This document shows positions 22,783 to 60,859 of a DNA stretch of 64,000 nt, one piece after another. Position numbers and translations under genes: made by a program. Position 1 is the first letter of the stretch. Each line of letters starts with the position of its first letter. The notes below the pieces were generated by a model. That model worked only from the letters and a program-made list of their open reading frames with translations. It was not told the DNA's origin and did not search any database. This stretch comes from Halanaerobium hydrogeniformans (GTDB taxonomy: Bacteria; Bacillota; Halanaerobiia; Halanaerobiales; Halanaerobiaceae), in assembly GCF_000166415.1 (NCBI RefSeq), contig NC_014654.1:1550001-1614000 (forward strand), in the 5' to 3' direction.

Positions 22783-23228
22783 TAATATTTCTCCCTTCCC
22801 AGAATACTTTTTAAACCCTCTAAAGCCAGAGTATATCCTTTTACACCTAAACCGGTTATCTGGCCCACTGCTACAGCTGCGGTGAGGGATTTATGCCTGA
22901 ACTCTTCTCTTTTATGAATATTACTGATATGAACTTCTATAACTGGCAGCCTGACTGCAGCCAGAGCATCTCTTAAAATTACGCTCGTATGGGTTAGACC
23001 ACCTGGATTAATTATTACTCCATCCAGCTGCTCAAAGTTTTGATGCAGATAATCTACAATCTCACCTTCGTGATTGCTCTGCATTATTTCGATTTCAAAA
23101 TCAAGCTCTTTGGCCTTTCTTTTTAAATTTTTATTAACCATTTCCAGGTTGTTTTTTCCGTAAATTTCCGGTTCTCTTAAACCAAGCATATTTAAATTAG
23201 GTCCATGAATTACAGCCACTTTTTGCAT
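22782..23228 (-). CDS. aroQ: 3-dehydroquinate dehydratase, type II
   Basis: Third step of the shikimate pathway: 3-dehydroquinate to 3-dehydroshikimate. The 148-residue flavodoxin-like fold shows VIHGPNLNMLGLREPEIYG with the catalytic Tyr, QSNHEGEIVDYL, INPGGLTHTSVILRDAL and EVHISNIHKREEFRHKS. It overlaps aroKB by 19 bases, forming a shikimate sub-operon. Confidence 0.95.
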   Translation of the reverse strand: MQKVAVIHGPNLNMLGLREPEIYGKNNLEMVNKNLKRKAKELDFEIEIMQSNHEGEIVDYLHQNFEQLDGVIINPGGLTHTSVILRDALAAVRLPVIEVHISNIHKREEFRHKSLTAAVAVGQITGLGVKGYTLALEGLKSILGREKY

Positions 23229-24811
23229 AAGTATTCCTCCAGATATTTTTTAATATTTTTATGATCAAATTTATCACTTAAATAAGTATCACCAATATCA
23301 TTAATTAAAACCCACCACATTTTATTATCACTAATTTTTTTATCGTGAGCAATATATTGCGCTAAATCATCAGGCCCAATATTTTTTGAAGGAAATAGTT
23401 GATAATTAAAATTCTGCAGTAGATTTATTATATCTCTAAAACTCTGATCATTTAAAACCCCAATTTTATTTGATAAAAAGGCTGTAAAAGAAATTCCCAT
23501 TACTACTGCCTCTCCATGTTTGTATTTAAACTTTTCTGCCCCTTCGACCGCATGACCAAAACTGTGGCCTAAATTTAACTTTTTACGCAGACCCTTATCC
23601 TTTACATCTTCTGCAACATAATAGTTTTTCATCTCCAGGGAAATCTTAGAAATTCTCTGCATTATTTTTTCCTCAAGCTTTAAGATCTCCCCCTGATTAC
23701 TTTTTAATAAGGAAAAGAGGGGATCACCATCTAAAATCGCATATTTAATTACCTCACCTAAACCAGATTTTATTTCTGCTTTAGGCAGGGTTTTTAACCA
23801 GTCTAAATGATAATATACCATTTCTGCCTGATAAAAACTACCGATCAGGTTTTTAGTATCTTTAAAATTAACAGCTGTTTTGCCACCAACACTGCTGTCA
23901 AGCTGTGAAATTAAAGTTGTGGGCATCTGAATCAATTTAAGACCCCTCAAGTAGGTAGAAGCGATAAAACCAGCTAAATCGCCGATTGTACCTCCACCGA
24001 AGGCTATTACATAATCTGAACGGGTAAAATTATTATCATATAAGATATCATAAGCCTGATTAAGATATTTAAGATCTTTTATCTTTTCTCCTGCTTCTAG
24101 TTTAAACTCAACGATCTCTGCCTGCTCTTCTAAGAGCTCAATAAAGCCTTTTCCATGTAATGTAATAACTTCTTTATCAGCAACTAAAAGCACCTTGCGT
24201 CCTGCAATTTTGTTCAGGATTTTCTTGAAGGAGTTCTTTTTATAAGTATTATTAATTATTACAGGATATTCTATATCATTATTTTCAATTTTGATTTCTA
24301 TTTTCTGGTCTGGAATTCTCTTTAAAATCTCTTCAGCAATTTCTTCAGGACCATGCTGGTTGCTGTCTATGTGTTCGGGAATATCCTGATAAACCTCTCT
24401 TCTTTCTTCGAGAAGCTTTCTCACTTTTTTCAAGGGATCATCAACCTCTAAAAGTGGTCTTACTATCTCAGAGTCAGCACATCTTTTGATAACTTCTTCT
24501 GCACTAACATCTATACAGAATATTTCACTTTCTTCGATTAGTTTTTCCCTTAATTCATCATCAAGCACTGCTCCTCCACCTAAAGCAATCACTGCATCTT
24601 CTTTGCTTTCTAAAAGGTGGTTAACGGTTTCTTTTTCTACCTTGCGGAAATATGCCTCACCATGCTGAGCAAATATCTCCGGAATAGATTTCCCTTCTCG
24701 CTTAACAATCTCTTCATCATTATCATAAAATTTTAGATCTTGTTTTTCTGCTAAAATCTTTGCTACTGTACTTTTTCCAGCAGCCATAAAACCTGCTAAA
24801 AATATTTTCAT
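23210..24811 (-). CDS. aroKB: Fused shikimate kinase/3-dehydroquinate synthase
   Basis: A 533-residue bifunctional protein. Residues 1 to about 165 form shikimate kinase, with Walker A GFMAAGKS (7-14), DNDEEIV and LGGGAVLDD. Residues about 185-533 form dehydroquinate synthase, with NAD-binding AFGGGTIGDLAGFIASTYLRG, LDSSVGGKTAVNF, SGLGEVIKYAI, and metal ligands in LNLGHSFGHAVE and YKHGEAV. Both active sites look intact. AroK-AroB fusions are known in Thermotoga. The start overlaps the end of the O-antigen-ligase-like gene by four bases (ATGA), which is an unusual coupling partner. Confidence 0.94.
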   Translation of the reverse strand: MKIFLAGFMAAGKSTVAKILAEKQDLKFYDNDEEIVKREGKSIPEIFAQHGEAYFRKVEKETVNHLLESKEDAVIALGGGAVLDDELREKLIEESEIFCIDVSAEEVIKRCADSEIVRPLLEVDDPLKKVRKLLEERREVYQDIPEHIDSNQHGPEEIAEEILKRIPDQKIEIKIENNDIEYPVIINNTYKKNSFKKILNKIAGRKVLLVADKEVITLHGKGFIELLEEQAEIVEFKLEAGEKIKDLKYLNQAYDILYDNNFTRSDYVIAFGGGTIGDLAGFIASTYLRGLKLIQMPTTLISQLDSSVGGKTAVNFKDTKNLIGSFYQAEMVYYHLDWLKTLPKAEIKSGLGEVIKYAILDGDPLFSLLKSNQGEILKLEEKIMQRISKISLEMKNYYVAEDVKDKGLRKKLNLGHSFGHAVEGAEKFKYKHGEAVVMGISFTAFLSNKIGVLNDQSFRDIINLLQNFNYQLFPSKNIGPDDLAQYIAHDKKISDNKMWWVLINDIGDTYLSDKFDHKNIKKYLEEYLCKKWL

Positions 24812-26217
24812 CCTGCTTCCTCCTCAGAATTCTCATTTTCAAATCTTATTATATATGCTCCTGCAAATCCTAAAACGGTCCAGTAAATTGGAGCAACTGT
24901 AATTACACTGATATTTAATACAGCCTGAAGCACATAGCCAATTATGGCAAAAAAGAGACAGCTTTTAACAAATCTATTTTGATCCTCTTCCCTGCTCAAA
25001 TCAATATTTTTAAAACTTTCTGGTTTAAGTTTAAATAAAATATAGCTAATTAAAAATAAGTAGATAAACAAAGCCGGTAAACCTGTGGTTACACCAAGCT
25101 GTATGTACTCTGAATGGGCTTTATCTACTATCTGCCTTTGATTTCCCTTAAATTCCTGAAAATCTTCCTGGGGGAAAACCTCAGCAAAATTGTCAGGACC
25201 TACCCCTAAAAGTGGTCTCTCAAACATTAAAGGCAGTGAATTCCTATATATAAACATCCTTGAACTTCCCACATGATCTATAATTTCTTCCTCCCCAGAA
25301 GAAAGATCATGAAAATCCCCAAAAATACTTAAAAATCTACTGCTAACCACCCCTCCATGAAAAAAGTTGATAAATATAGTGATCAGTAAAAATAATACTA
25401 AGATTTTAATTAACTCTCTTTTTTTCTTTTTAAGATAATCAAAGAGAACAGCTAAAGCAATCAATGCTGTGATAAAAAAGGCCAGCCAGCTTCCGCGGGT
25501 TGCTGTAGCAAGCATAAAAGCATAAATTAAGCCACTGCTTAAGAAAGCAAAAAGTTTATATTTTTCTTTTTTTAAAACGAAATATGAAAATATAACAGCA
25601 GGTAAAACAAGAACCGCAAAACTGGCAGCAAAATTGGGATTACCAAAAGTTGCAAAAGCCCTGTACCAGTTCTCCCTTATCGGATCTCTTGTTATAAAAT
25701 CAAAGCCAAAAAATTGCATTAATCCATAAAGTGCTAAGATCACTGCTGAACCCCAGATAAGAAAAGCATAATTTTTAAAATCTTTTAATTCTTCCACAAA
25801 ATTAGCAGTCAAAAATGCTAAAAACAAATAGCTGCCTAAACTGATAAATCCCTCCCAGCGGTAAACCCTGCCATTTAATGCTGTATATCTATCGATAGCA
25901 AAAAAAGTTGAAAGGGAAAAAAGCAGAAAAAGACTTAAAATCAAATAATTAAACAAATTACCTTTGATGATTTTATCGCTTTTGATAATTAAATAGAGAA
26001 AGATTAAAAGTAAGACAAAAATACTAATAGATAATATATTTAAACGGGGTAGATATATATTATCAAAACGAGATAATTGATAATTACCACCATCTATTTT
26101 ATATAAATCAAATTCCCTGTAAAAAGGTAAGTAGGCAAAAAGGATAAAGAAATTACAGAGAAAAATTATATAAATAATAGCTTTTTTTAGTTTTTTTCTT
26201 AACTCAATTTCATCCAT
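24808..26217 (-). CDS. O-antigen ligase/polymerase-like polytopic membrane protein
   Basis: A 469-residue membrane protein with about ten to twelve hydrophobic helices and one large hydrophilic loop before the last helices. The loop contains LLGVGPDNFAEVF and KAHSEYIQLGVTTGLPALFIYL, the O-antigen ligase (Wzy/WaaL/PglL) signature region. Such enzymes transfer lipid-linked glycans to lipid A or, as PglL/PilO, to pilins. It lies directly after the secretin operon but is separated by a terminator, and it is translationally coupled to aroKB. Its acceptor cannot be deduced; surface glycan or pilin glycosylation are the main options. Confidence 0.82.
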   Translation of the reverse strand: MDEIELRKKLKKAIIYIIFLCNFFILFAYLPFYREFDLYKIDGGNYQLSRFDNIYLPRLNILSISIFVLLLIFLYLIIKSDKIIKGNLFNYLILSLFLLFSLSTFFAIDRYTALNGRVYRWEGFISLGSYLFLAFLTANFVEELKDFKNYAFLIWGSAVILALYGLMQFFGFDFITRDPIRENWYRAFATFGNPNFAASFAVLVLPAVIFSYFVLKKEKYKLFAFLSSGLIYAFMLATATRGSWLAFFITALIALAVLFDYLKKKKRELIKILVLFLLITIFINFFHGGVVSSRFLSIFGDFHDLSSGEEEIIDHVGSSRMFIYRNSLPLMFERPLLGVGPDNFAEVFPQEDFQEFKGNQRQIVDKAHSEYIQLGVTTGLPALFIYLFLISYILFKLKPESFKNIDLSREEDQNRFVKSCLFFAIIGYVLQAVLNISVITVAPIYWTVLGFAGAYIIRFENENSEEEAG

Positions 26218-26310: not shown

Positions 26311-27606
26311 TTAGTTATCTAAAATCTCTTTTATTTCTTCACTTGTTAATGGGATAAAACTACTACTTTTATAATTCTCTTTCTCTGTACTTAATTCCTG
26401 CATATTTTTGCCTAATTCTTTACTTTCCTCCTTATTAACCGTATTTTCACTATAAATAATTTCTGGACTGATGAAGATCATTAGTTCTGAATTCATTACC
26501 GTGCTTTTTTCTGATTTAAATAAATTACCGAAAAGAGGTAGCTCAGAAAAGAAGGGTATTTTACTTAAAGATTTAATTTCATCTTCTTTAATTAAACCTC
26601 CGATCGCTAAAACCTGCTCGTTTTCTAAAATAACGGTTGTTTCAGCACTGCGAGAGTTAACCGCTGGCAGTCCATCAGAAACTACCTGGCCGATACTGTT
26701 GACAGAGGGTTTAATTTCTAAGAGGATCTGATTATCATTGATTATTTTAGGTAGAAACTCTAAAACTATCCCTGCCTCAATATAGCTTAAGCTGGAAACG
26801 ATATTATCGCCTTCTACCCTTTCTAATTTAACTGGTATCTGATCACCGATTACAAGTTTTGCTTTTTGTCTGTCTAAGGTCATCAAACTGGGATTCGCCA
26901 GAATATTAGAAGCTCCCTCTTCTTCTAATATTTTTAAAGTATCAGGCCAGTTAACCCGTATTTTTTCTATACTGCCTGAATCATCTTTAATAAAACTAAG
27001 TTCAGAGAGTTGATCTGGATTGATACCCAGTTCTTTAACCTTATTGCGGCTAATTTCTTCAATTCTGGCCTTTATTAAAACCTGTTTTTGAGGACGATCA
27101 AGCCCAGCAATTAATTTTTCAATCTGTTGATGTTCTTTTTCTGAGGCTTCAAGTAATATCCCATCACTTTCTAAATTGATAAAATTAAGGTCACTGAATA
27201 TTTTTTGTAAATGCTCAATTGCTCTTTCTGAATTTATATTTTCTAAAAGATAGTTTTTCTTGATCAGCTTTTTGTCTTGAGCCTCTATATTTTCTCTACT
27301 GCTTACATAGATCGTGTTTTCTGTTTTTCGATAGCTCAGATCAAAACTTTGCGTAATCAGATTTAGAGCATCAACAAATTTAATCTCATCAAAAATCGCG
27401 GTAACATTTCCGCTAACATAGCTATCACAGATTAAGTTTACTCCACCTAAATCTGCTAGAATAATTAAGGCTCTCTCTAATTCTACATTATTTAAGTTAA
27501 CACTAACCCTTTTCTGGCTTAACTCAGCTGCAAAAACCAGCGAAAGATCTAAGAGTAGAATTAATAACACTAAAAAAAGGATTAAAATTATTCTTTTTTT
27601 ATTCAA
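26311..27606 (-). CDS. gspD: Secretin, GspD/PilQ-like (short)
   Basis: Outer-membrane channel of the first filament system. It has a signal peptide (residues about 1-27, ending LVFAAE). A secretin/TonB short N-terminal domain includes VNLNNVELERALIILADLGGVNLICD, and one N1-like domain follows. The secretin core contains EEISRNKVKELGINPDQ, ANPSLMTLDRQKAKL, the EAGIVLEFLPKI strand pair, SRSAETTVILENEQVLAIGGLI and KIPFFSELPLFGNLF. At 431 residues it is much shorter than PilQ at 50891-52780 (629), having fewer periplasmic repeats. A secretin implies an outer membrane. It is the last gene of the operon and overlaps the upstream gene by 8 bases. Confidence 0.9.
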   Translation of the reverse strand: MNKKRIILILFLVLLILLLDLSLVFAAELSQKRVSVNLNNVELERALIILADLGGVNLICDSYVSGNVTAIFDEIKFVDALNLITQSFDLSYRKTENTIYVSSRENIEAQDKKLIKKNYLLENINSERAIEHLQKIFSDLNFINLESDGILLEASEKEHQQIEKLIAGLDRPQKQVLIKARIEEISRNKVKELGINPDQLSELSFIKDDSGSIEKIRVNWPDTLKILEEEGASNILANPSLMTLDRQKAKLVIGDQIPVKLERVEGDNIVSSLSYIEAGIVLEFLPKIINDNQILLEIKPSVNSIGQVVSDGLPAVNSRSAETTVILENEQVLAIGGLIKEDEIKSLSKIPFFSELPLFGNLFKSEKSTVMNSELMIFISPEIIYSENTVNKEESKELGKNMQELSTEKENYKSSSFIPLTSEEIKEILDN

Positions 27607-28219
27607 CTTTATTATCCCCCCAGACTGATAATTTTACTTTAAAATTCTCTAAAGTTATCATTACTTCTTTAGCCTCAATATTTTTAATTAGAAAACCTGC
27701 TAATTTTTCTCCTTCTCTTTTTTCAATAAACTGATTTTGAAATTGAAAAATAGCCAGACTGTGATTTTTATCTTTAATAATTCCCTGCAGTTTGAAGGGA
27801 ATATCTATTTTTTCTGCCCTATTATATATTAAATCTTCTACCTCTTTTTCTTCAGAAAAAATTTGCTGATCTGCATTTTCTGGATACCAGAAATCTTCTC
27901 CACCGGCAAAAACTAATAGTTCCTCTTCTTTGACTGCAGTTTTTTGATCATTATCTGACTCGATTTGCTGATTAAAAAATGGGTCCTGCAGCTCATCTAT
28001 GGAAGCTATCATCTTCGTGCTGTCTTCTTCAGCTGAGCTTTGTTCATCAGTCTCAATATCAGTCTCAATAACTTCAGTCTCATTTTCAACTACAGTCAAT
28101 TCTTCGGCCGACTCTCCTTTGAAATTATTAAATAAAACTGCTGCAATTAATATGATTAAGATCGTGATTAAGACAAGGAGCAATTCTTTTTTCTTGATCT
28201 TTGCTGCCATATTTATCAA
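27599..28219 (-). CDS. Inner-membrane anchored PilP/GspC-like assembly protein
   Basis: A 206-residue protein: short cytoplasmic N-terminus (AAKIKKKELL), one transmembrane helix (about 13-29), an acidic linker rich in Glu and Thr, then a small beta domain (KIDIPFKLQGIIKDKNHSLAIF). The domain resembles the HR/PilP fold that contacts the secretin. The place before the secretin gene matches GspC or PilP. The start is TTG at 28219, with AGGGG eight bases upstream; the next ATG is too far from this site. The name is by position and shape only. Confidence 0.65.
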   Translation of the reverse strand: MINMAAKIKKKELLLVLITILIILIAAVLFNNFKGESAEELTVVENETEVIETDIETDEQSSAEEDSTKMIASIDELQDPFFNQQIESDNDQKTAVKEEELLVFAGGEDFWYPENADQQIFSEEKEVEDLIYNRAEKIDIPFKLQGIIKDKNHSLAIFQFQNQFIEKREGEKLAGFLIKNIEAKEVMITLENFKVKLSVWGDNKVE

Positions 28220-28220
28220 C

Positions 28221-28676
28221 TCATTTTCCCCTTATTATTCTTAAATCAAAGAGGAGATCATTACCTTCTCTGGCCAGCTTAATCCGGGCCGGCATTATAC
28301 CCTGCTGCTCAGTTTCCAGATATTTTAAAAAGTTAAAAGCAGAGTTAAAATCTCCTCTAAAATTTAAGTTTATTTGCTCACTGCTGCTGTTAAAACGCAG
28401 CAGCTTCAAACCAAAGCTGCCACCTGTTTGAATTAACTGAGCAGCTCTTTTTTCTAAATTAATATTTAAATTTTGAAGGTTTTTATTGTTTTGAAATTTT
28501 TTTTCTTGATAGAGTTTTTCTGCTTTTAATAAATTGTTTTCTGTACTGACAGCTTCTAGCTTTAAATTATTGAAAGCTTTAAAATTCCTATCTACATTAA
28601 AAGCTGTATAACAAAGCATTAATATAATCAAAATTAAGAGTATTATTTTAAACTGTGTATCGGTGATTAGCTTCAT
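28221..28676 (-). CDS. PilO/GspM-like inner-membrane protein
   Basis: A 151-residue bitopic protein: transmembrane helix at about 10-27 (KIILLILIILMLCYTAFNV), a coiled-coil stretch, then a ferredoxin-like beta-alpha domain with LNFRGDFNSAFNFLKYLETE. That segment matches the PilO pattern, in which a strand precedes the helix ending in L-x-x-L-E. It lies between the PilN-like and PilP-like genes, as in pilMNOP clusters. Confidence 0.68.
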   Translation of the reverse strand: MKLITDTQFKIILLILIILMLCYTAFNVDRNFKAFNNLKLEAVSTENNLLKAEKLYQEKKFQNNKNLQNLNINLEKRAAQLIQTGGSFGLKLLRFNSSSEQINLNFRGDFNSAFNFLKYLETEQQGIMPARIKLAREGNDLLFDLRIIRGK

Positions 28677-28700
28677 TCTAACCCCTCCAAAACTATGACC

Positions 28701-29159
28701 TTATTCTCTAAGCCTGGTTTCTATTTGAAAATTATAGTTTTCAGCAGCATTGATTGTTTTAAGTTCTGGTTCCATAAAATAATTATCGCTTTCTAAAATT
28801 TCAAGCAGCTTAATAATATTTTCTTTTTCTTTTGTACTGCCATTAATTATTACTTTTTCCTGGTTGATTATTAAACTCTCATAACTTAAGTTCTGAGAAT
28901 AACTGCTTAATAAGCTGAGCAAGTCAGAAAAAGCAGGTTTGATTTCATCTGTTTTAATTTCTAAGCTCTGACTGAGACTGTTATATTTATCTATCATATT
29001 TATGTTTTCCATTACCTCTGCCTTAATGTTTCTCTGCCTTATGACCAGATAATAATTTAGAACAGAGAGCAAGAAAAGAGTAAATAGCAGGATAATTATG
29101 CTGTATTTAATTACTTTATCTTTTAATTCAAAGTTTTTTTCTTTAAAGATGATCAGCAT
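28701..29159 (-). CDS. PilN/GspL C-terminal-like inner-membrane protein
   Basis: A 152-residue bitopic protein with one transmembrane helix (YSIIILLFTLFLLSVLNYYLV), a coiled coil, and a terminal alpha/beta domain (IIKLLEILESDNYFMEPEL). This is the PilN-like architecture. The start at ATG 29159 is chosen because it overlaps the upstream stop in an ATGCTGA arrangement; the GTG at 29171 would lie inside the upstream gene without better support. Identity rests on order: PilM-like, this, PilO-like, PilP-like. Confidence 0.65.
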   Translation of the reverse strand: MLIIFKEKNFELKDKVIKYSIIILLFTLFLLSVLNYYLVIRQRNIKAEVMENINMIDKYNSLSQSLEIKTDEIKPAFSDLLSLLSSYSQNLSYESLIINQEKVIINGSTKEKENIIKLLEILESDNYFMEPELKTINAAENYNFQIETRLRE

Positions 29160-29896
29160 TTGCTTACACACCAGAGCAGAGAACTGAGAAAGACAAAATC
29201 ATCTTCTTTAAGATTTACAAAATTATCTAAATCCAGTAAATCACTGCTGCCTTCAAAAACTGGCAGCTTCGATTTTTTAACATTAAGATAATATTTTTTT
29301 ATTTTTTCTAACTCTGCTTTTATTTCTGATTCTCTTATTGAGGCTCTTACCAGTTCCAGTCTGTTTTTTTCGATTAACAAAACTGTATAATTATCGCCAA
29401 ACTTATAGTATAGAAGATAATTATCCTCCCTTTTCAGCTCATTAATCACCGAGTATACTGCCACTGGTAGAGCAGAAACCAAATAATTGTTACGGTATTT
29501 ATCAAGCACTTCTGTTAAAGGATCAAGCTGTTCTTTTTCTGCAGCAAATAACTTGATTTCTTTGAGCTTTTGATCAGCCTGAGGATTGTTTTCCAGATAG
29601 TCATAATAATATTCATTTTCGAATTCTATTCCATTTTGGTTTAGTTGAGAAAAAATCTGGTTTTCACTGATTTTAAATTCATCTTTAGGCTGAATGGCTA
29701 AGGACCTATAGAGAAGATCTTCAGCAGGTATTAAAACCACATAGCGGCAGTTAAAATTGAACTTTTTAATTTTCCCTATGTAATCAACCTCATTGATCCC
29801 TTCTAATAAATCAATCTCACTTTGATTATATTTAGCAACAATATTCTTAAAAGATTCATTACAGGGAATAGAAAGCGAAACATATTTGTCAAACAT
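29153..29896 (-). CDS. Divergent PilM/GspL cytoplasmic-domain-like protein
   Basis: A 247-residue soluble protein with an actin-like flavour: VVLIPAEDLLYRSLAIQP resembles the PilM/GspL segment before the first subdomain, and YLVSALPVAVYSVINEL and NYTVLLIEKNRLELVRAS resemble the following strands. The nucleotide-binding motifs that are clear in PilM at 54228-55292 are absent, so it may be a scaffold without ATP binding, as GspL is. There is no transmembrane helix; the membrane part appears to be supplied by the next gene. Confidence 0.6.
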   Translation of the reverse strand: MFDKYVSLSIPCNESFKNIVAKYNQSEIDLLEGINEVDYIGKIKKFNFNCRYVVLIPAEDLLYRSLAIQPKDEFKISENQIFSQLNQNGIEFENEYYYDYLENNPQADQKLKEIKLFAAEKEQLDPLTEVLDKYRNNYLVSALPVAVYSVINELKREDNYLLYYKFGDNYTVLLIEKNRLELVRASIRESEIKAELEKIKKYYLNVKKSKLPVFEGSSDLLDLDNFVNLKEDDFVFLSSLLWCVSKC

Positions 29897-30316
29897 CTAA
29901 TCACCCCTACTAATTTTTTTGTTGATAATGCTTAAATTATCTTTATCCACCGTTATCTCAACGAGGTATTTATTATTTTTATTAGCAGCTTCTGAATAAA
30001 AATAATAATATTCTTCACCTTCTTCCCCTCTTATATTTATTTTTAAATCTTCATCTAAATATAATTCTTCTGCTAATGGAAGTTCCACACCAGCAGCTAG
30101 TTGATATGATATATATTCCACACCGGCTTCTACTGCAGCCCTGTTTTGACTGCTGTAAACCCGCTGACTGCTAATCTGGTGATTAAGATACTGCTGCTGC
30201 ATAAGCAGGGGTATAAAGAGGGCGATTAGAGAAATTAGAACTAAGTTTAAATAGATTATATACCCCTTATTATCAAGTCTAAAGCTAGTCAGTTTAGCCA
30301 TAATATATTTTTTCAT
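29897..30316 (-). CDS. GspK/PilX-like minor pseudopilin, minimal
   Basis: A 139-residue protein with a prepilin-like start: charged leader, NKG, then the hydrophobic YIIYLNLVLISLIALFIPLL. There is no Glu at mature position 5, a known hallmark of GspK. The helix continues into AAVEAGVEYISYQLAAG, the A-x-E-A-G pattern of GspK/PilX. The large inserted domain of GspK is missing. It follows the I- and J-like genes, as K does in type II secretion operons. It ends one base before the next gene. Confidence 0.68.
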   Translation of the reverse strand: MKKYIMAKLTSFRLDNKGYIIYLNLVLISLIALFIPLLMQQQYLNHQISSQRVYSSQNRAAVEAGVEYISYQLAAGVELPLAEELYLDEDLKINIRGEEGEEYYYFYSEAANKNNKYLVEITVDKDNLSIINKKISRGD

Positions 30317-30335
30317 CTGCCAGTCCTTTCGGAAT

Positions 30336-30845
30336 TTAAATATAGACCAGTCTGGAAATCAATAATTCCTCATTATTGTCTTTAATAATCAATTTAAGCT
30401 CCAATAAATTTTCTTCGAGATAATTAAATTTTAAGCTTTCTACATTTTCGAGTACTGAGAGATTTCTCCCAAAATCTTTGTTAAGATAATCTTCTCCACC
30501 CAGCCTTCTTGCCAAAACCTGACTGTTTTCTCGTTGATAAAGATTATAGCTCAGCCACTGCTGACCCTCATTATAATAAGAGAAAAAATGTATTTCTGTT
30601 TGAGAGATCAGATCTATCTGCTGAGAATATTTAAGCTGTTCTGCAATAATATCTACAAGCAGATAGGCATCTAAATAAAGATTAGAATAGGCTGTAAAAT
30701 AATTTTGATCTGCATAAAGGCCGAGCAAAAGCTCTAAAAATAATCCAGCTAAAACTGTGGAGATGGTAATAACCAGGATAACTTCCAGCAGAGTGAAGCC
30801 TCTATTATCTTTAAATCTATTCTTTAAGCAGAGTAATAAGTTCAT
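30336..30845 (-). CDS. gspJ: GspJ-like minor pseudopilin
   Basis: A 169-residue class III prepilin: leader ending KDNRG, then FTLLEVILVITISTVLAGLF with Glu at mature position 5. The C-terminal beta-rich domain (ESLKFNYLEENLLELKLIIKD) is that of GspJ/PilW proteins. Start ATG 30845 has GGAGAGAAAAC upstream and overlaps the I-like gene by 29 bases. It probably joins I and K in the tip complex. Confidence 0.78.
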   Translation of the reverse strand: MNLLLCLKNRFKDNRGFTLLEVILVITISTVLAGLFLELLLGLYADQNYFTAYSNLYLDAYLLVDIIAEQLKYSQQIDLISQTEIHFFSYYNEGQQWLSYNLYQRENSQVLARRLGGEDYLNKDFGRNLSVLENVESLKFNYLEENLLELKLIIKDNNEELLISRLVYI

Positions 30846-31230
30846 GTTTTCTCTCCTGATCTCTACAGTTATAATTAACTATAATCTTTAATTTATATAA
30901 GCCATCATAAATAACTCCCTTGTTTTTATAAGGGCTTAACTCAATTCTATGCAGATGATAATTTTTCTCTAAACCTTCCTTTTCTAAGATCTGCAGCTGT
31001 TTTAAAAATTCGGCTTCAATATTTTCTTCATTATCACTTAGATCAAAATTTTTTGCACGAAAAGCTTCTAAAATAGATTCAGTCCAGTTAACAGCGGCAT
31101 TTCTATCGGCTAAAAAACTATTTACCTCCAGACCTGTTTTAATGGTTCTACTCATCACAGCAAGTACGATTCCAGCCAGAAAAATAGTTATTATTATTTC
31201 AAGTAATGAAAAACCAGCTTCATTTTTCAA
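30817..31230 (-). CDS. gspI: GspI-like minor pseudopilin
   Basis: A 137-residue prepilin with a very short leader (MKNEAG) followed by FSLLEIIITIFLAGIVLAVM, Glu5 present. After the helix comes NWTESILEAFRAKNFDL, the conserved shape of GspI/PilV. It overlaps both neighbours (11 bases with H, 29 with J), so the pseudopilins are probably translated as a coupled group. Confidence 0.78.
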   Translation of the reverse strand: MKNEAGFSLLEIIITIFLAGIVLAVMSRTIKTGLEVNSFLADRNAAVNWTESILEAFRAKNFDLSDNEENIEAEFLKQLQILEKEGLEKNYHLHRIELSPYKNKGVIYDGLYKLKIIVNYNCRDQERKHELITLLKE

Positions 31231-31726
31231 TTCTAACCCTCCCCAGTTGATTTACGGTTAAAGAATAGATTTCAGCATCTGCTCTTGAAAAAGCGATTGT
31301 TCCACCTCTGGCAGCAGCACTGCTGCTGAACCTAATCCAGTCATAATATTGCTCACTGATTAACTCAAAATCCAGTGATTTATAGAGCAAAAAGTGGGCC
31401 GGATAACTTCCCTTTTTCTTAATGACTTCTCTGCTATCTTCAATTGTATAAAAATAATAGGGGATTTTATGCTGCCCTGGACCAGGGCTGCTGTAAATCC
31501 TAAAGATATAGGTCTGACCATCTATAACAGCCCTATTTCTGGCCCATCTAAAATCTGCTGCCAGGCTTTCAAGCAGCTGCTCAAGCTGATAATCCTGAGT
31601 CATTTGACTTCTGTAAATAAAAGAAGTGCTGAATAAAACCCCTATCATCACTATAACAAGCATTAATTCGAGCAGAGTGTAACCTTTATTAGCTATCAAG
31701 AGAAGGTTCTGAATTTTCTGGACCAT
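31220..31726 (-). CDS. gspH: GspH/FimT-like minor pseudopilin
   Basis: A 168-residue prepilin: leader ending ANKG, then YTLLELMLVIVMIGVLFSTS with Glu5. It is followed by the GspH hallmark LLESLAADFRWARNRAVIDGQTY. The start is placed at ATG 31726 (MVQKIQNL) behind AAGGTAAGG; the open frame extends to 31816, but the extra part overlaps gspG and is not leader-like. It overlaps gspG by 38 bases. Confidence 0.8.
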   Translation of the reverse strand: MVQKIQNLLLIANKGYTLLELMLVIVMIGVLFSTSFIYRSQMTQDYQLEQLLESLAADFRWARNRAVIDGQTYIFRIYSSPGPGQHKIPYYFYTIEDSREVIKKKGSYPAHFLLYKSLDFELISEQYYDWIRFSSSAAARGGTIAFSRADAEIYSLTVNQLGRVRIEK

Positions 31727-32123
31727 CAACCTTACCTTCTTCTGAATGGAAGTAATAATAATTATTTGAATCAAGCTCATAATAGATAATATATTCTTCT
31801 GCGTCATCTGCAGCATCCGCTAAATAACTGTAATCACCAGCATCGTTATTTAAATTTAAACTTGATGAATCAAGAACATCACTTATATCTGAACCATCAT
31901 TAGTCCCTGGATAACTGTGGTGATCCATATAATACATTTCTAAACCATGCATTATATTGTGCAGGTCACTCTTTATTACCGTTATGTTGGCTCGATCTTT
32001 AACCCCACTAAAAGTTGGAACTGCTATACTCATCAAAATACCGATTATCGAAATCACAATTAAAAGTTCTATTAAAGTAAATCCATCTTTTTCTTTAAAA
32101 ATATTATTTAATAATTTACTCAT
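31689..32123 (-). CDS. gspG: Major pseudopilin, GspG-like
   Basis: A 144-residue prepilin: leader MSKLLNNIFKEKDG, then FTLIELLIVISIIGILMSIA and VPTFSGVKDRA, Glu5 present. LHNIMHGLEMYYMDHHSYPGT is the characteristic GspG/pilin helix followed by the Y-P turn. The acidic C-terminus (DAGDYSYLADAADDAEEYI) could hold the GspG calcium site. It is the first pseudopilin after the platform protein, as G follows F in type II secretion operons. Confidence 0.82.
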   Translation of the reverse strand: MSKLLNNIFKEKDGFTLIELLIVISIIGILMSIAVPTFSGVKDRANITVIKSDLHNIMHGLEMYYMDHHSYPGTNDGSDISDVLDSSSLNLNNDAGDYSYLADAADDAEEYIIYYELDSNNYYYFHSEEGKVDGPENSEPSLDS

Positions 32124-32150
32124 TGTAGTCCTCCTTTGATTTTTAAAAGC

Positions 32151-33185
32151 TTAGATAATTAAATAAAGCTGAAACATCGGTGTGAGTACTGCTGCAGCAA
32201 GTAAAGCTACAAAAACTGCAGTTAATGTGATTAAAAAAGGCTCTAAATACTGCAGCAGCCTTTCTGATCCTAATTTTAGTTTTTGATAATAATAATCACC
32301 TGATCTTTCTAACATGGTTTCCATTTGGACGGTTTCTTCACCACTTAAAAGCAGATAATAAAATGTATCGGGTATTAAGTTATTATCTGCAAAACTTTCG
32401 GTTAAAGAACCCCCCTTTGAAACATTTAAAACTGTATTATTAATAAATAATTTATATTGATGGCTTGCTATTATCTTTTCTAACAGCTTTAAAGCAGGAA
32501 GTAGTTTCATACCACTTTTTAAAAATATCGCTAAATAAGAGGCAATTTTGGTTAAAATTAAATACTGATATAATCTGCCCAGCCAGGGAACTTTAAATAT
32601 TATTTTTTCTAAGATACCGTTCTCTTCCTGACTCAAAATTAAATAAATTAAGCTCAGTAATGCTGTTAAAGTTATTAAAACGATTAATAATAAATGGTCT
32701 TCAATTATTAAACTCAATCTTAAAAATAATCTCGTTAAAAGGGGTAATTGCCCCTGAAATTCTGCAAATAATTCTAAAAAGATGGGCATAATTAATTTTA
32801 TTAAAAATACTGCTGAAATTATTAGGGTTGTGATTATTGTGATGGGATAAAAGCAGACCTTGTGCAGTTTATTTTTTAGATCGCTCTGGTTTTGATAATA
32901 TTTTTCTAGATTATCCATAACCTGAACTAAACTGCCGGTTTTTTCTCCTGCACTGATTACTGAAGTAAATAATGGTGGGAATGCTTCTTTTTTGGCTAGT
33001 GATTCTGCTAGAGTATTACCTTTTTCTAAATCTTTTATGATAGCTTGGATTAGTTTTTTGTCTTCTTCTGAACTCATCTGTTTAGAAAGCACTAATAGTG
33101 ATTTTGGTAATGAAAGGCCGGTTTTAAGTAATATATAAAGCTGAGAGCAAAAAAATTTTAAATTAAAATCCTTTTTAAAAATAAT
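32151..33185 (-). CDS. gspF: Platform protein GspF/PilC-like, probable non-ATG start
   Basis: Polytopic inner-membrane platform of the pilus/secretion motor. The first GTG with a downstream frame is at 33092, but the same frame stays open upstream and encodes FFCSQLYILLKTGLSLPKSL, the expected GspF N-terminal domain. No ATG, GTG or TTG precedes it in frame. AAGGAG at 33200-33195 is placed nine bases before an ATT at 33185 (six before an ATA). An ATT start, as in infC, is therefore proposed, giving 344 residues. Both GspF repeats are visible (GNTLAESLAKKEAFPPLFTS and GGSLTESFADNNLIPDTF), with transmembrane helices near 100, 145 and 320. The ribosome-binding site lies in the end of gspE. Confidence 0.82.
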   Translation of the reverse strand: MIFKKDFNLKFFCSQLYILLKTGLSLPKSLLVLSKQMSSEEDKKLIQAIIKDLEKGNTLAESLAKKEAFPPLFTSVISAGEKTGSLVQVMDNLEKYYQNQSDLKNKLHKVCFYPITIITTLIISAVFLIKLIMPIFLELFAEFQGQLPLLTRLFLRLSLIIEDHLLLIVLITLTALLSLIYLILSQEENGILEKIIFKVPWLGRLYQYLILTKIASYLAIFLKSGMKLLPALKLLEKIIASHQYKLFINNTVLNVSKGGSLTESFADNNLIPDTFYYLLLSGEETVQMETMLERSGDYYYQKLKLGSERLLQYLEPFLITLTAVFVALLAAAVLTPMFQLYLII

Positions 33186-33190
33186 TATAT

Positions 33191-34870
33191 TCAGCTCCTT
33201 TCTAGATTAACAACCCTCAGCAGCTCTGCAATTGAACTTTCTCCCTGAGAGATTTTAGAAACAGCATCTGCAAATAGTGTTCTCATTCCCGATTCTTTAG
33301 CTGCTTTTTTAAGTTTTTTTCTAGAATAATTACTGCTGATTAGTTCTCTGATATCTTCATTGACAAATAGTATTTCTGCAACTGCAGTTCTATTTTTATA
33401 TCCAATTTGAGCACATTTTCTACATCCTACTGCCTGATAGATTATTTTTTTCTCAAATTCTCTTTGCAATTTTTTAGGATAGAGTTTAGAGCTTTGCTCC
33501 TCTTTTTTACAGGCCGGACAGAGTTTTCTTAAAAGCCTCTGAGCGACTACAGCGTTTAAGGTGCTGCCGATCAAATAAGGGGGGATCCCCATTTCTATCA
33601 ACCTTAATACTGCAGATACTGCATCAATGGTATGGATGGTAGTTAAGACAAGATGTCCTGTTACCGATGCCCTTACGGCAATTTCGGCAGTTTCTTTATC
33701 CCTTATTTCTCCGATCATTATTATATCTGGATCCTGCCGCAGGATTGACCTTAGAGCTCTGGCATAACTAAGCCCCTGAGCCGGATTGATCTCGATTTGA
33801 TTTAAAGCAGGCAGTTTGTATTCAACCGGATTTTCGATTGTGATAATGTTTAAGTTCTCTGAACTCAGTTCATTTAAAATTGCAAATAGACTGGTTGTTT
33901 TACCACTGCCGGTTGGACCTGCTAAAAGAATAATCCCGGAATTAAACTTTAATATCTCTTTAAATCTTTTTTGATTATGGCTGCTGAAATTTAAATTATT
34001 TACTGTTAATAGCTGACTGTTTCTTAAAAGCAGTCTGAGTACTGCTTTTTCTCCATAAATTGTTGGAATAACTGAAGTTCTAATATCATAGTTTTCTGCC
34101 TTGAATTTAAATTCCATCTTCCCATCCTGAGGGAGATGTTTGTTTGTAATATCCATGCCTGAGATTATTTTTATTCTTGAGATTACAGCTGCTGCACAGG
34201 CTAAGGGGAATTCATAATATTTTTCTATAATACCATCAACCCGATAAAATATCTCAAAGCTATTATATTTGCACTCTAGGTGGATATCACTGGCTGTTAG
34301 AGAAACAGCCTCATTAATTAAATTATTCAATAACTTTACCACCGGTGCATCATCTACTAAGCTTTTTAGACCTTTAATATCACTGCTGTCAACATTTTTA
34401 ACCTGGCTGAATTCTTTTAATATTTCTGCTGGATCAACCCTGTAATAGCTGCTGTATAATTCTTCTTTGATGATCTGAAAATCTTCTTCACCGATCAACA
34501 ATTCTTTTATCTGATGCTTATATTTAAATCTAAGATTTTCTTTAAAAATTGGAGCTAAGGGATAAAGACAGCCCAAATATAGCTGGTCAGCTTCTATTTT
34601 TAAGGGTAAAATATTATACTTTTCTACCTCAGGCAGAGTTAAATAGCGACTTATTCCAGCCTGAAGCTTAAAATTATCTTTCTTAAAAAGATTAATGTTA
34701 AAATATTCTGATATTTTAGCTAGTAGGAGTTTTCTACTACAGCAATTATTTCGTCTTAGATAAGATATTACTGCTTCTACACTGTTTTCCTGATTTATTT
34801 CTAATAGAGAGCGATAAACTTCTTTAGAGATCAACTGCTGATCATAAATAAATTGAGAAAAATCATCCAC
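33191..34870 (-). CDS. gspE: Assembly ATPase GspE/PilB-like
   Basis: Hexameric cytoplasmic ATPase powering assembly of the first filament system. The N-terminal GspE-type domain occupies about residues 1-150. The motor has Walker A GPTGSGKTTS, Asp box ITIENPVEY, Walker B IMIGEIRDKETAEIA and His box TIHTIDA. A tetracysteine zinc site (LCPACKKEE, GCRKCAQIGY) is diagnostic of assembly rather than retraction ATPases. Length is 559. It is the first gene of the operon; no retraction ATPase accompanies this cluster. Confidence 0.93.
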   Translation of the reverse strand: MDDFSQFIYDQQLISKEVYRSLLEINQENSVEAVISYLRRNNCCSRKLLLAKISEYFNINLFKKDNFKLQAGISRYLTLPEVEKYNILPLKIEADQLYLGCLYPLAPIFKENLRFKYKHQIKELLIGEEDFQIIKEELYSSYYRVDPAEILKEFSQVKNVDSSDIKGLKSLVDDAPVVKLLNNLINEAVSLTASDIHLECKYNSFEIFYRVDGIIEKYYEFPLACAAAVISRIKIISGMDITNKHLPQDGKMEFKFKAENYDIRTSVIPTIYGEKAVLRLLLRNSQLLTVNNLNFSSHNQKRFKEILKFNSGIILLAGPTGSGKTTSLFAILNELSSENLNIITIENPVEYKLPALNQIEINPAQGLSYARALRSILRQDPDIIMIGEIRDKETAEIAVRASVTGHLVLTTIHTIDAVSAVLRLIEMGIPPYLIGSTLNAVVAQRLLRKLCPACKKEEQSSKLYPKKLQREFEKKIIYQAVGCRKCAQIGYKNRTAVAEILFVNEDIRELISSNYSRKKLKKAAKESGMRTLFADAVSKISQGESSIAELLRVVNLERS

Positions 34871-47557: not shown

Positions 47558-48994
47558 ATGTCTTTTAATTCTAAAAAGCAATTGTCTTTCGGTGATCTTT
47601 ATGAACAGGCCAAAGATTGGGCTCAAAATGATAAACCTCAATTCCTTGAAATGCTCGACCAATATCTTGATTTATCTGAATTTATTCCTGACGGTTTCTA
47701 CAATGCTTACTACAAATATTTTGGTAGAAATAGAATTTACAGACTGGAATCAATGCTTTCTGCATTTATACTGCAAAAAATACTGGGTATTCCAACTCTT
47801 GTCCTTCTAATTAATATCTTAACTTTAAGCAGTGATTTAAAAGAATTCTGTGGTTTTAACTCTGTACCTGATATCTCTCAGTTTTCTCGTTTTAAGACAA
47901 AATTTGAAGATCATTTAGAAGACTTTTTCTATCACCTTGTTGATGTTACTGAACCTCTCTGCAGAAAAATTGATCCTTTAATGGCTGATCTTTTTATCTA
48001 TGATACAACTGGTTTTGAACCCTATGTGATTGAAAACAATCCTAAATACATAAATAATATTATTCGCAGACTTAAAAATATCTACAAAAATGATAAAAAT
48101 GTTAATATTTATGGTTTTGCGTATCAGTCTATGCCTTCTTCTGCTCAAGTTAATAATGAGATAAAACAACTCTATATTAACGGCCATTTTTGTTATGTCT
48201 ACAAAGCTGGTATTGTCACTAATGGTCTTGGAATTATCCGTCACATTTCTTTTTTTGATGATCAATTTAAAGATAATCACCCTGAAATACCTATTGAGAA
48301 AAAGACTGATTCACCTGATGAAGATAAATCTATTGGTGATTCAACTTCTTTAAAACCAGTTTTAGAAGATTATTTTAAACTTCACAGTAATCATCAATAT
48401 TCAACTTTTATCGCTGATTCAGCCTTTGACAGTTATCAAACTTATCCTTTTTTACTGAAAGATTTTGGTTTTGATAAAGCAGTCATACCACTTAATTTTA
48501 GAAACACTAAATCAAGTTTACCACAGCCAGAATACAATGAAAACGGCTGGCCTTTATGTCCTAAAGACTCTTCCTTACCAATGAAACCTAATGGTTGGTG
48601 TCGCGGTAAAAACCGCAGTCCCAGATTTAAGTTTGTCTGTCCTAAAATTAATCATAAGGGTGGTAAAAGAAACTGCTACTGTGAGAACCCCTGTACTGAC
48701 TCCAGTTACAGTAGAGTTATTTATACCTATCCTGACCAGGATTTAAGAACTTACCCTGGTATCATCAGAGATACAGATGATTGGATAAACCTCTACAGAA
48801 AACGAGGAGTAGTTGAACAGACAATTAACTATTTCAAAGATGCCATGGTTACTGGTAATTTAAAGACTCAGAACCTAAAAAGTGTTAAATCAGATGTTTT
48901 TCTAGCCGGAATCACTCAACTTTTAACATTAATTCTAGCTGATAAAATGGATAAACCAGAAAATATTAGATCTTTAAGATCACTAATTGCTTAG
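47558..48994 (+). CDS. DDE transposase (IS4/IS1182-like)
   Basis: A 478-residue transposase. The N-terminal region has the DUF772-like YFGRNRIYRLESMLSAFILQ. The first catalytic Asp is in LFIYDTTGFEPY, the second in STFIADSAFDSY, and the Glu in RKRGVVEQTINYFKDAM (the Y-x-x-R-x-x-x-E-x-x-x-x-x-x-K-type pattern). A Cys-rich insert (CPKDSS, CRGKN, CPKIN, CYCENPC) separates the second Asp from Glu. The start at ATG 47558 is behind AAAGGAGGAAATC. The closest IS family cannot be fixed without a database. Confidence 0.9.
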   Translation: MSFNSKKQLSFGDLYEQAKDWAQNDKPQFLEMLDQYLDLSEFIPDGFYNAYYKYFGRNRIYRLESMLSAFILQKILGIPTLVLLINILTLSSDLKEFCGFNSVPDISQFSRFKTKFEDHLEDFFYHLVDVTEPLCRKIDPLMADLFIYDTTGFEPYVIENNPKYINNIIRRLKNIYKNDKNVNIYGFAYQSMPSSAQVNNEIKQLYINGHFCYVYKAGIVTNGLGIIRHISFFDDQFKDNHPEIPIEKKTDSPDEDKSIGDSTSLKPVLEDYFKLHSNHQYSTFIADSAFDSYQTYPFLLKDFGFDKAVIPLNFRNTKSSLPQPEYNENGWPLCPKDSSLPMKPNGWCRGKNRSPRFKFVCPKINHKGGKRNCYCENPCTDSSYSRVIYTYPDQDLRTYPGIIRDTDDWINLYRKRGVVEQTINYFKDAMVTGNLKTQNLKSVKSDVFLAGITQLLTLILADKMDKPENIRSLRSLIA

Positions 48995-50076: not shown

Positions 50077-50844
50077 ATGCAGAGTCTGGAAAAAATAGAA
50101 TGGGAGAAAATATTTTCCTTTATAGTTAAAACAGGTCAAATTATGGATATAAATAAGTACTCCTATTATTTTATTAAAGAATTAAATAAACTGATACCAT
50201 TTTATGCAGCCAACTTCTTTCTTTATGAAAATGGTAATAAGGAATTAAAAGAACCCATCTGTTTTAATATCAGCAGCTCTGCTTTAAAAAATTACTATGA
50301 TTATTATTATAAACTTGATGATATCCGCAAAAGAGCTTTTGACAAACCAGAACCGATCAGAAGTACAGACCTGATGAATTACAAGAAGTGGATCAATACA
50401 GAATACTTCAATGATTTCCTCCAGGAGAATAATTTATTTTATTCCTGTGGTATAGATATTCACTTTAAAGATAGACTCCTGGGAACCATCAGCATCTTCA
50501 GACAAAAAAAAGAAGGAAATTTTGAATTAAAAGATTTAATGTATTTAAAATTAATTAGTCAGCACAGTGCAAATCATCTCTATAAATTATTTGTTATCCA
50601 CAAATTAAAAAGAGAAAATGAAATAAATAAAGAAAAGCTAATTAAAAAGAGCGGTAATCAATATAATTTAACAGATAGAGAAAAACAAGTATTAAAATTA
50701 ATAATCCAGGGTATGAGTAATCAAGAAATTGCCGCAGAACTCTTTATATCTATTAATACTGTCAAAAAACATATCAGCCATTTATTTAATAAATGTAAAG
50801 TAAGCAGCAGGATTGAGTTAATCCCGATGGTCTATAATATTTAA
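50077..50844 (+). CDS. LuxR-family transcriptional regulator with N-terminal sensor-like domain
   Basis: A 255-residue regulator. Residues about 1-185 resemble a GAF/autoinducer-binding alpha-beta fold (IPFYAANFFLYENG, FYSCGIDIHFKDRLLGTISIFRQ). Residues 193-255 are a LuxR/GerE helix-turn-helix: NLTDREKQVLKLIIQGMSNQ, EIAAELFISINTVKKHISHL. No receiver domain is present, so it probably senses a ligand. The start is behind GGGAGGATTTTAGT. It faces the pilQ end of the pilus operon tail to tail and is divergent from the exported protein gene. Confidence 0.88.
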   Translation: MQSLEKIEWEKIFSFIVKTGQIMDINKYSYYFIKELNKLIPFYAANFFLYENGNKELKEPICFNISSSALKNYYDYYYKLDDIRKRAFDKPEPIRSTDLMNYKKWINTEYFNDFLQENNLFYSCGIDIHFKDRLLGTISIFRQKKEGNFELKDLMYLKLISQHSANHLYKLFVIHKLKRENEINKEKLIKKSGNQYNLTDREKQVLKLIIQGMSNQEIAAELFISINTVKKHISHLFNKCKVSSRIELIPMVYNI

Positions 50845-52780: not shown

Positions 52781-53186
52781 CTACTTCCCCTCCAATCTTT
52801 AACCGGAACCTAAACCCACGGTTTCTAACAATAACACTATCTCTCTCGATTGAAATTAATTCGTAACCATCTTTGCTGTAATAGCCTCGAACTAGCTCTA
52901 CTCGATCTCCAACATCAATCAAGGCTATTCTATCTGTACCACTGCTGATAATTCCATCTAAGTTAAATGGCAGCTCTCTCCTTATATCAGCAAAGGTTAT
53001 AACAGGTTCTGCAGGTCTCTCTTCTGCTTCTCTCTCTACCTGAATAACCGGTGATTCTACAAAAGGATTTCTAAATTCTTTTCCACTATATAGGTCTTTT
53101 TCATTTTCTTCAGCTAAGACAGAAAACGGTAAGCTAAAAATTAGAACAAAAGATAAAATTACTAAGATAATTATTTTTTTATTCAT
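52770..53186 (-). CDS. pilP: PilP-like pilus assembly protein
   Basis: A 138-residue exported or membrane-anchored protein: N-terminal hydrophobic segment (IIILVILSFVLIFSLPFSVLA), a linker with RNPFVESP (the PilP pattern R-x-P-F), then a small beta domain (LPFNLDGIISSGTDRIALIDVG). PilP links the PilNO ring to the secretin. The start at ATG 53186 is chosen because AGGAG lies upstream at good spacing; a TTG at 53195 is possible. It overlaps pilO and pilQ. Confidence 0.82.
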   Translation of the reverse strand: MNKKIIILVILSFVLIFSLPFSVLAEENEKDLYSGKEFRNPFVESPVIQVEREAEERPAEPVITFADIRRELPFNLDGIISSGTDRIALIDVGDRVELVRGYYSKDGYELISIERDSVIVRNRGFRFRLKIGGEVDER

Positions 53187-53730: not shown

Positions 53731-53731
53731 C

Positions 53732-55292: not shown

Positions 55293-55316
55293 CAGACCAC
55301 CTCTTCCCATATCAAA

Positions 55317-56447: not shown

Positions 56448-56476
56448 GGTTATTCATCCTCTCTTTAATAAAAGCA

Positions 56477-56962: not shown

Positions 56963-56967
56963 TATAA

Positions 56968-57390: not shown

Positions 57391-57472
57391 TTATATCAGC
57401 CTTCTTTCTGATTATGAAAATCATTTGAATCAATTTATTCATCTACTTGTATAACTATAAATATTATTTTAA

Positions 57473-58882: not shown

Positions 58883-58930
58883 CACCAACACCTCTTTAAT
58901 ATCTTTATACGTCTTTATTCAACAAATAGA

Positions 58931-59524: not shown

Positions 59525-59525
59525 T

Positions 59526-59957: not shown

Positions 59958-60021
59958 AAAACCTCCTTTAATCCTAAGTTAATATATACATCTATTTTAA
60001 AAATTCTCTTTTTAAAGAACC

Positions 60022-60050: not shown

Positions 60051-60106
60051 TAGAATAAGATTTTTATTATAATTGTCATAGACTCATAAAATCTCCTCCT
60101 AAATTT

Positions 60107-60859
60107 CTACAAGAAAATTGCAAAATACAAATCAATCAACTGCTCACCAAAAAATATCATAATAACAGCACCAAGACAGATAAACGGTCCGAACGGAATT
60201 CTATCTTTACGATCTATAACACCTAAACCCATTAAGCTAAGTCCAATAACTGAACCAACTAAAGATCCTATAAAAATACTCATCAAACTATATTTATATC
60301 CTAAAAAAGCACCTAACATTGCAACAAGTTTAACATCGCCCATACCCATTCCACCTTTAAAAATTAAAGCAACCGCTAAAAGAATTAAAGCTGGAATAAC
60401 TATGCCTAAAAGAGAATCAAAAATACTAAGATAATCAAATATAATTGCAGAAATAAAGCCGATTAAAATACCGGAATAAGTTATAACATTAGGTATAATC
60501 ATATATTTATAATCTATCACAGAAATAACTATCAAAGCTGATAATAATAAAAGCATTAAAAAGAATTCTGCAGTTAAACCAAAGTTAAGATATGCAGCTA
60601 AAAAGAAAATACCTGTTAATAACTCTACAAATGGATACTGCCAGGATATACTGGCTCCACAATATCTACATTTTGCTCCTGTAATCAAAAAACTTAATAC
60701 TGGAATAAGATCAATAACTTTTAAACGAGTATTACAATGAGGACAGTGAGATGGTGGTTTAATTATTGATTTTTCTTCTGGCAGTCTATAAATTACCACA
60801 TTTAAAAAACTACCCACTATTAAACCTAAAATAAAGAAATATATTGCTAAAAACATCAT
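60107..60859 (-). CDS. pilD: Prepilin leader peptidase/N-methyltransferase PilD
   Basis: Membrane aspartic peptidase (family A24) that cleaves after the Gly of class III leaders and methylates the new N-terminus. The 250 residues include FILGLIVGSFLNVVIYRLPEE, the zinc-binding cysteines CPHCNTRL and CRYCGASIS, and the catalytic Asp pair in VIDYKYMIIPN and GGMGMGDVKLVAML. About seven to eight transmembrane helices follow. It is the only such peptidase in the window, so it should process the prepilins of both clusters. Its start overlaps the upstream pilin stop (ATGA). Confidence 0.95.
   Translation of the reverse strand: MMFLAIYFFILGLIVGSFLNVVIYRLPEEKSIIKPPSHCPHCNTRLKVIDLIPVLSFLITGAKCRYCGASISWQYPFVELLTGIFFLAAYLNFGLTAEFFLMLLLLSALIVISVIDYKYMIIPNVITYSGILIGFISAIIFDYLSIFDSLLGIVIPALILLAVALIFKGGMGMGDVKLVAMLGAFLGYKYSLMSIFIGSLVGSVIGLSLMGLGVIDRKDRIPFGPFICLGAVIMIFFGEQLIDLYFAIFL

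What the first reader, a model, noticed from the sequence alone, without database searches (positions are those of the whole stretch)
26311..34870. Type II secretion-like operon in E-F-G-H-I-J-K-L..D order
ATPase, platform, major pseudopilin, H, I, J, K-like, L/PilM-like, PilN-like, PilO-like, C/PilP-like and secretin follow the proteobacterial gsp order, with no retraction ATPase and no peptidase. This is a hybrid between T2SS and T4P: pseudopilin order of T2SS, alignment proteins of T4P. It suggests a dedicated secretion machine in a diderm Firmicute.
Basis: partly seen in the sequence, partly recalled or inferred. Interest (0 to 1): 0.65.

Follow-up and report, generated by a model that had tools for sequence, protein, structure and literature searches.

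The report
PilT-less second type IV pilus-like machine
A salt-loving two-membraned relative of Gram-positive bacteria carries a second, conserved pilus-type machine that looks like a protein-secretion operon in gene order but descends from type IV pili; it may pull in DNA rather than export proteins.

Summary
The operon is real: twelve genes, 26311-34870 minus strand, in the order E-F-G-H-I-J-K-M-N-O-P-Q. Purifying selection acts on all twelve, and the order is kept in all 10 further Halanaerobium loci and in two related genera. It is not a type II secretion system (T2SS). The secretin is PilQ-type; placing it with GspD is rejected (p=0.006). ATPase plus platform form their own Halanaerobiales lineage; grouping with T2SS is rejected (p=0.006). 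The major pseudopilin fails the GspG cut-off, and there is no fused GspL and no large GspK. The distal half is the pilMNOPQ-aroKB cassette of type IVa pili. True T2SS loci occur in other Halanaerobiales and Halanaerobiia, but none was found in Halanaerobium. Nor is it a recent copy of the neighbouring T4P cluster (50.9 kb to about 66 kb), which supplies the genome's only prepilin peptidase and PilT. The operon is a second, PilT-less, T4aP-derived machine with a comG/gsp-like pseudopilin block and a GspC-like anchor. The most likely role is a competence-type pseudopilus feeding the genome's ComEA-ComEC (about 0.4). Protein secretion (0.2) and a static pilus (0.25) are not excluded. Function is inferred, not tested.

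The parts
33191..34870 (-). E: extension ATPase (T2SSE family), degenerate MshEN N-terminus
   Evidence: PF00437 414 bits, MshEN 19.8 bits; own Halanaerobiales lineage
32151..33175 (-). F: inner-membrane platform, short (about 340 aa), probable non-canonical start near 33175
   Evidence: PF00482 117 bits; start read from DNA; orthologue lengths
31689..32123 (-). G: major pseudopilin; lacks the GspG GTxDDI calcium motif
   Evidence: N_methyl; TIGR01710 59.7 bits, below cut-off 88.85; C-termini
31220..31726 (-). H: minor pseudopilin (GspH/FimT/ComGD-like)
   Evidence: GspH profile and class III signal peptide
30817..31230 (-). I: minor pseudopilin
   Evidence: N_methyl 27 bits, orthologues
30336..30845 (-). 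J: minor pseudopilin (weak ComGF match)
   Evidence: N_methyl 28 bits, ComGF 17 bits
29897..30316 (-). K: small pseudopilin without Glu5, like ComGG/PilX; lacks the bulk of GspK
   Evidence: alignment of orthologues
29153..29896 (-). M: reduced PilM-like actin-fold protein (size of HofM)
   Evidence: predicted fold: PilM Z 10.4, cyto-EpsL Z 9.8; G012 orthologue hits PilM_2 43 bits
28701..29171 (-). N: PilN (separate gene, not fused to M)
   Evidence: PF05137 27.2 bits, cut-off 22.8
28221..28676 (-). O: PilO/GspM-position protein
   Evidence: position, TM and size, orthologues
27599..28219 (-). P: bitopic protein with conserved DPF motif and a C-terminal HR/PilP-fold domain
   Evidence: GspC-HR Z 11.4 rmsd 1.1, PilP Z 9.3-9.4; DPF conserved; TM helix 10-33
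26311..27606 (-). Q: secretin, PilQ/HofQ-type (STN + one Secretin_N + secretin domain)
   Evidence: PF00263 149 bits; PilQ 114 vs GspD 87 bits in PDB; tree and AU test
24808..26217 (-). Wzy_C (O-antigen ligase family) protein between secretin and aroKB; present in 6 of 13 clusters; membership uncertain
   Evidence: PF04932 69.5 bits; gene maps
23210..24811 (-). aroK-aroB fusion: conserved flank, not part of the machine
   Evidence: SKI + DHQ_synthase
60107..60859 (-). PilD, the genome's only prepilin peptidase, in the neighbouring T4P cluster; presumed to process the pseudopilins
   Evidence: single PF01478 hit in genome

Best explanation
This is a second type IV filament machine of T4aP descent: a comG/gsp-like block (ATPase, short platform, one major and four minor pseudopilins) followed by the pilMNOPQ cassette beside aroKB, without PilT. 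Its pseudopilins are presumably cut by the PilD of the neighbouring T4P cluster. ATPase E and platform F would polymerise G on a tip of H-I-J-K. M-N-O-P would couple them across the periplasm to the PilQ-type channel Q. I think the short filament most likely captures DNA and brings it to ComEA-ComEC, as Com pili do beside a retractile T4P in Streptococcus sanguinis. Shown: gene content, order, conservation, T4aP-type secretin, non-T2SS lineage, a single PilD, ComEA-ComEC in the genome. Inferred: filament assembly, coupling and DNA uptake. The identity part I hold at about 0.85; the stated confidence is for identity and DNA-uptake role together.
For: Secretin within PilQ; GspD grouping rejected p=0.006. 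Domain layout STN + one Secretin_N + secretin is that of T4aP secretins (PMC7545093). MNOPQ-aroK-aroB order and sizes near those of E. coli hofMNOPQ, annotated 'DNA utilization' (259/179/146/134/412 vs 247/156/151/206/431 aa); pilMNOPQ is flanked by aroK-aroB in Proteobacteria. Block E-F-G-H-I-J-K parallels comGA-GG, with no PilT and a short platform; K lacks Glu5, as ComGG does (PMC7212644). The f4 sister lineage also has a short ATPase (361-395 aa) and a 345 aa platform in the aroE-aroK slot. comEA-comEC adjacent in this genome; comEC in every Halanaerobium searched. One PilD. dN/dS 0.09-0.32.
Against: ComEC is near-universal in the group, also where this operon is absent, so co-occurrence has no power. 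The neighbouring T4aP with PilT could itself serve DNA uptake. Two f4 genomes with the machine show no ComEC hit (G016, G023; draft assemblies, genus mates have one). ComGA/GB/GC models score below cut-off, and grouping with clostridial comG-like ATPases is rejected (p=0.019). The P domain fits GspC slightly better than PilP. HofMNOPQ and comG order are analogies, not tests of function.
Confidence: 0.42

Rival explanations
1. A T2SS-like secretion machine: T4aP-derived, but convergently used to push folded proteins out through the PilQ-type secretin.
For: gsp-like pseudopilin order; no PilT; best ATPase and platform HMMs are GspE and GspF, though far below cut-off; P has a GspC-HR-like domain (Z 11.4) and a TM anchor; within the order, genomes with this machine type and genomes with true GspG do not overlap (0 of 38 with both), as if one replaced the other. 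Denise et al. 2019 report that T2SS of Bacteroidetes group with T4aP (PMC6668835).
Against: Secretin and E+F phylogenies reject membership of T2SS; G is below the GspG cut-off and lacks GTxDDI; no GspL fusion; K is small; P has the PilP-type DPF motif; the complementarity rests on few clades.
Confidence: 0.2
2. A second, static adhesive or surface pilus.
For: T4aP ancestry; separate PilM and PilN; a Wzy_C (O-antigen ligase family) gene, which could glycosylate pilins, follows in 6 of 13 clusters.
Against: Operonic minor pilins and absence of PilT fit pseudopili and Com pili equally; no adhesin-like large pilin in the operon, whereas cluster B has two PilX_N-like proteins of 376 and 472 aa.
Confidence: 0.25
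3. Recent duplication of the neighbouring T4P cluster.
For: Adjacent in G012; joining the secretin with the local PilQ is not rejected (p=0.44).
Against: E+F lie outside the local PilB/PilC clade (100/98) with a separate sister lineage in family f4 (97/95); ATPases only about 40% identical.
Confidence: 0.05

Closest known systems
T4aP pilMNOPQ-aroKB / E. coli hofMNOPQ / Haemophilus comABCDE (the last from memory)
   Same: Order M-N-O-P-Q before aroKB, separate PilM and PilN, small PilQ-type secretin (PMC7545093)
   Different: ATPase, platform and pseudopilins are in the same operon; no PilT; M reduced; P is bitopic with a GspC-like HR domain
ComG competence pilus of monoderm Firmicutes
   Same: Order ATPase-platform-major-four minor pilins, no PilT, short platform, last pilin lacks Glu5 (PMC7212644)
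   Different: Has M-N-O-P and a secretin; ComGA/GB/GC models below cut-off; ATPase not grouped with comG-like ones
Type II secretion system
   Same: E-F-G-H-I-J-K order, GspC-like HR fold
   Different: PilQ-type secretin, unfused M and N, small K, G below GspG cut-off, E+F outside the T2SS clade
Conserved T4P locus of Halanaerobiales (Antunes et al. 2016, PMC5007114)
   Same: T4P components with PilQ in a diderm Firmicute
   Different: The text of that paper describes one conserved T4P locus; here a second, PilT-less one lies beside it (I could not see the figure)

Membership tests
T2SS | GspD-type secretin | tested here: not met
   Tree and AU p=0.006; one Secretin_N domain
T2SS | ATPase and platform in GspE/GspF clade | tested here: not met
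   Concatenated AU p=0.006; ATPase alone p=0.059
T2SS | GspG major pseudopilin | tested here: not met
   59.7 bits vs cut-off 88.85; positive control L048 164 bits; no GTxDDI
T2SS | Fused GspL | tested here: not met
   M and N are separate genes; fused protein seen in L048
T2SS | Large GspK | tested here: not met
   116-144 aa in orthologues vs 327 in E. coli
T2SS | GspC HR domain | tested here: inconclusive
   Fold fits GspC Z 11.4 and PilP 9.4; DPF motif is PilP-like
T2SS | Secretes proteins | not testable with these tools
   needs a mutant secretome
T4aP | PilQ secretin with pilMNOPQ by aroKB | tested here: met
T4aP | PilT retraction ATPase in the system | tested here: not met
   none in operon; the only PilT in the genome is in cluster B
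T4aP | PilB in a T4aP clade | tested here: inconclusive
   Own lineage with f4; deep order unresolved
ComG (ComM) | ComGA, ComGB, ComGC above model cut-off | tested here: not met
   262/300, 116/240, 36/75 bits
ComG (ComM) | ATPase groups with comG-like ATPases of Clostridia | tested here: not met
   AU p=0.019, long branches; no Bacilli ComGA available
ComG (ComM) | Needed for DNA uptake | not testable with these tools
   needs transformation assay

The most novel reading that the evidence does not exclude
A diderm version of the comG machine: a dedicated PilT-less DNA-uptake pseudopilus with T4aP alignment proteins and a secretin, separate from the retractile T4P of the same cell, conserved in two families of Halanaerobiales.
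Probability: 0.35. Interest if true: 0.6.

Novelty: new variant of a known kind. Interest (0 to 1): 0.4.

Why it matters
It is a lineage of type IV filaments with mixed T2SS, Com and T4P traits that gene order would file as T2SS and phylogeny does not. If it takes up DNA, it shows how a competence pilus works through an outer membrane in Firmicutes, bearing on the diderm-monoderm transition. It also shows that true T2SS in Halanaerobiales lies elsewhere.

Tried and rejected
ComGA above cut-off was found in no genome of the phylum sample, so Bacilli ComGA is missing from the trees. ComEC/ComEA co-occurrence was tried as a functional test and has no power because it is near-universal. The deep placement of the A lineage among T4P is unresolved. 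The AU test of ATPase A with local PilB did not finish. Structure of M cannot tell PilM from cyto-GspL: Z 10.4 and 9.8 are tied. A T2SS identity and a recent local duplication were considered and rejected as argued.

Full report
Identity of the genome. The window is G000:C1:1550001-1614000 of a 2,613,117-base single-contig genome. The size fits Halanaerobium hydrogeniformans from memory; the related single-contig genome of 2,309,262 bases fits H. praevalens, also from memory.

Twelve co-directional genes lie at 26311-34870. E, F, the pilins, N and Q are recognised by profiles. K, M, O and P are not, and rest on orthologues, position and, for M and P, predicted fold. The M model (mean pLDDT 68.8) matches PilM (2ych Z 10.4, rmsd 4.6 over 202) and cyto-EpsL (Z 9.8) equally. 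The P model has an N-terminal TM helix and a confident C-terminal domain that matches GspC-HR (Z 11.4, rmsd 1.1 over 61) above PilP (Z 9.3-9.4). P orthologues conserve a (D)PF motif of the kind in E. coli HofP (RDPF) and cluster B P (RNPF). All twelve genes are under purifying selection (dN/dS 0.09-0.32).

Conservation. The same order, followed by aroKB-aroQ-pepP-efp where the contig extends, is present in ten further Halanaerobium loci and in G013 and G012. In G012 (JADQBT010000002, Halanaerobiales Soudan_29) the operon directly follows cluster B pilQ and precedes aroC. In relatives without it (L071) pilQ of the T4P is followed by a gene of aroC size, aroK and aroB. So the operon sits in the aroE-aroC-aroKB slot that ordinarily holds a T4P cluster. 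In family f4 (G016, G020, G023, G029) the slot between aroE and aroK holds a related machine with a short ATPase (361-395 aa), a 345-348 aa platform, a PilM-like gene, small genes in the N and O positions and, in most, a PilQ.

Phylogeny. ATPase tree: the Halanaerobiaceae operon ATPases are one clade (99/85), outside the T2SS clade and outside Halanaerobiales PilB. ATPase plus platform: A and f4 together 97/95; local PilB/PilC separate 100/98; true T2SS loci of Halanaerobiales join the second proteobacterial GspE group 100/96. Forcing A+f4 with T2SS is rejected, p=0.006; with ATPase alone p=0.059. Secretin: A falls on the PilQ side; forcing it with GspD is rejected, p=0.006, while forcing it with local PilQ is not, p=0.44.

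Not a T2SS. The order's true T2SS loci serve as a positive control: L048 has GspG at 164 bits (cut-off 88.85), GspE 627 (cut-off 630), GspF 365 (cut-off 424) and a fused GspL. GspG above cut-off occurs in 12 of 61 relatives and in no Halanaerobium. The window's G scores 59.7, and the genome has only three T2SS/T4P-type ATPases above cut-off: E, PilB and PilT. E. coli K-12 hofMNOPQ-aroK-aroB matches the distal half in order and nearly in size, and Proteobacteria keep pilMNOPQ beside aroK-aroB (PMC7545093).

Mechanism. The pseudopilins need a peptidase, and the only one is PilD of cluster B, so the two machines probably share it (inferred). E and F would assemble G; H-I-J-K would form the tip, with K lacking Glu5 as ComGG does (PMC7212644) and GspK too. 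M-N-O-P link to Q. The genome encodes adjacent ComEA (SLBB + HHH) and ComEC. S. sanguinis is a precedent for a Com pilus beside a retractile T4aP, the latter dispensable for DNA uptake (PMC7212644). PilT-less DNA uptake also has precedents (PMC6668835). I therefore favour DNA uptake at about 0.4, with secretion and a static pilus left open. The GspC-like HR domain and the non-overlap with true T2SS within the order (0 of 38 genomes with both; about 20 have the A or f4 type, 5 have GspG) are the best points for secretion, but they rest on few clades.

What is known. Antunes et al. 2016 (PMC5007114) describe a conserved T4P locus with PilQ in Halanaerobiales; Denise et al. 2019 (PMC6668835) mention T2SS and T4aP in diderm Clostridia. 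I found no paper in the library that describes this second machine. Absence from an open-access library is weak evidence.

Noticed in passing
L048, L049, L050, L051, L052, L053, L054, L057, L061, L065, L191: A separate true T2SS locus in other Halanaerobiales and Halanaerobiia, with GspG above cut-off (in those searched) and, in L048, a GspL with PilM-like and PilN parts fused; its ATPase groups with the Bradyrhizobium/Thiothrix-type GspE.
   Followed up: partly
window 50891-64000 and G000:C1:1613-1616 kb: Neighbouring full T4P cluster B (secretin, P, O, N, M, two PilX_N-like proteins, pilins, PilD, PilC, PilT, PilB) starting at aroE.
   Followed up: partly
window 33093-33190: Platform gene F appears to start at a non-canonical ATT/ATA codon; the annotated GTG start would cut the domain.
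   Followed up: partly
L046:14883-16553: The G012 ATPase keeps an MshE-type c-di-GMP-binding motif (49.8 bits, cut-off 38); it is degenerate in the window and the f4 ATPases are too short to hold it.
   Followed up: no
window 24808-26217: Wzy_C O-antigen ligase family gene, present in only 6 of 13 clusters between secretin and aroKB; possible pilin glycosylation.
   Followed up: no
window 23210-24811: aroK and aroB are fused in Halanaerobium and G013 but separate in G012 and other families.
   Followed up: no
window 47558-48994 and 50077-50844: A DUF772/DDE transposase and a LuxR-family regulator lie on the plus strand between the leu/ilv genes and cluster B.
   Followed up: no
G000:C1:506481-507570: Further pilin-like ORFs (288-298 aa frames) far from any assembly ATPase.
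   Followed up: no
G020, G026, G029, G034, G036: Short ComEC open frames (356-570 aa instead of about 780) in family f4.
   Followed up: no
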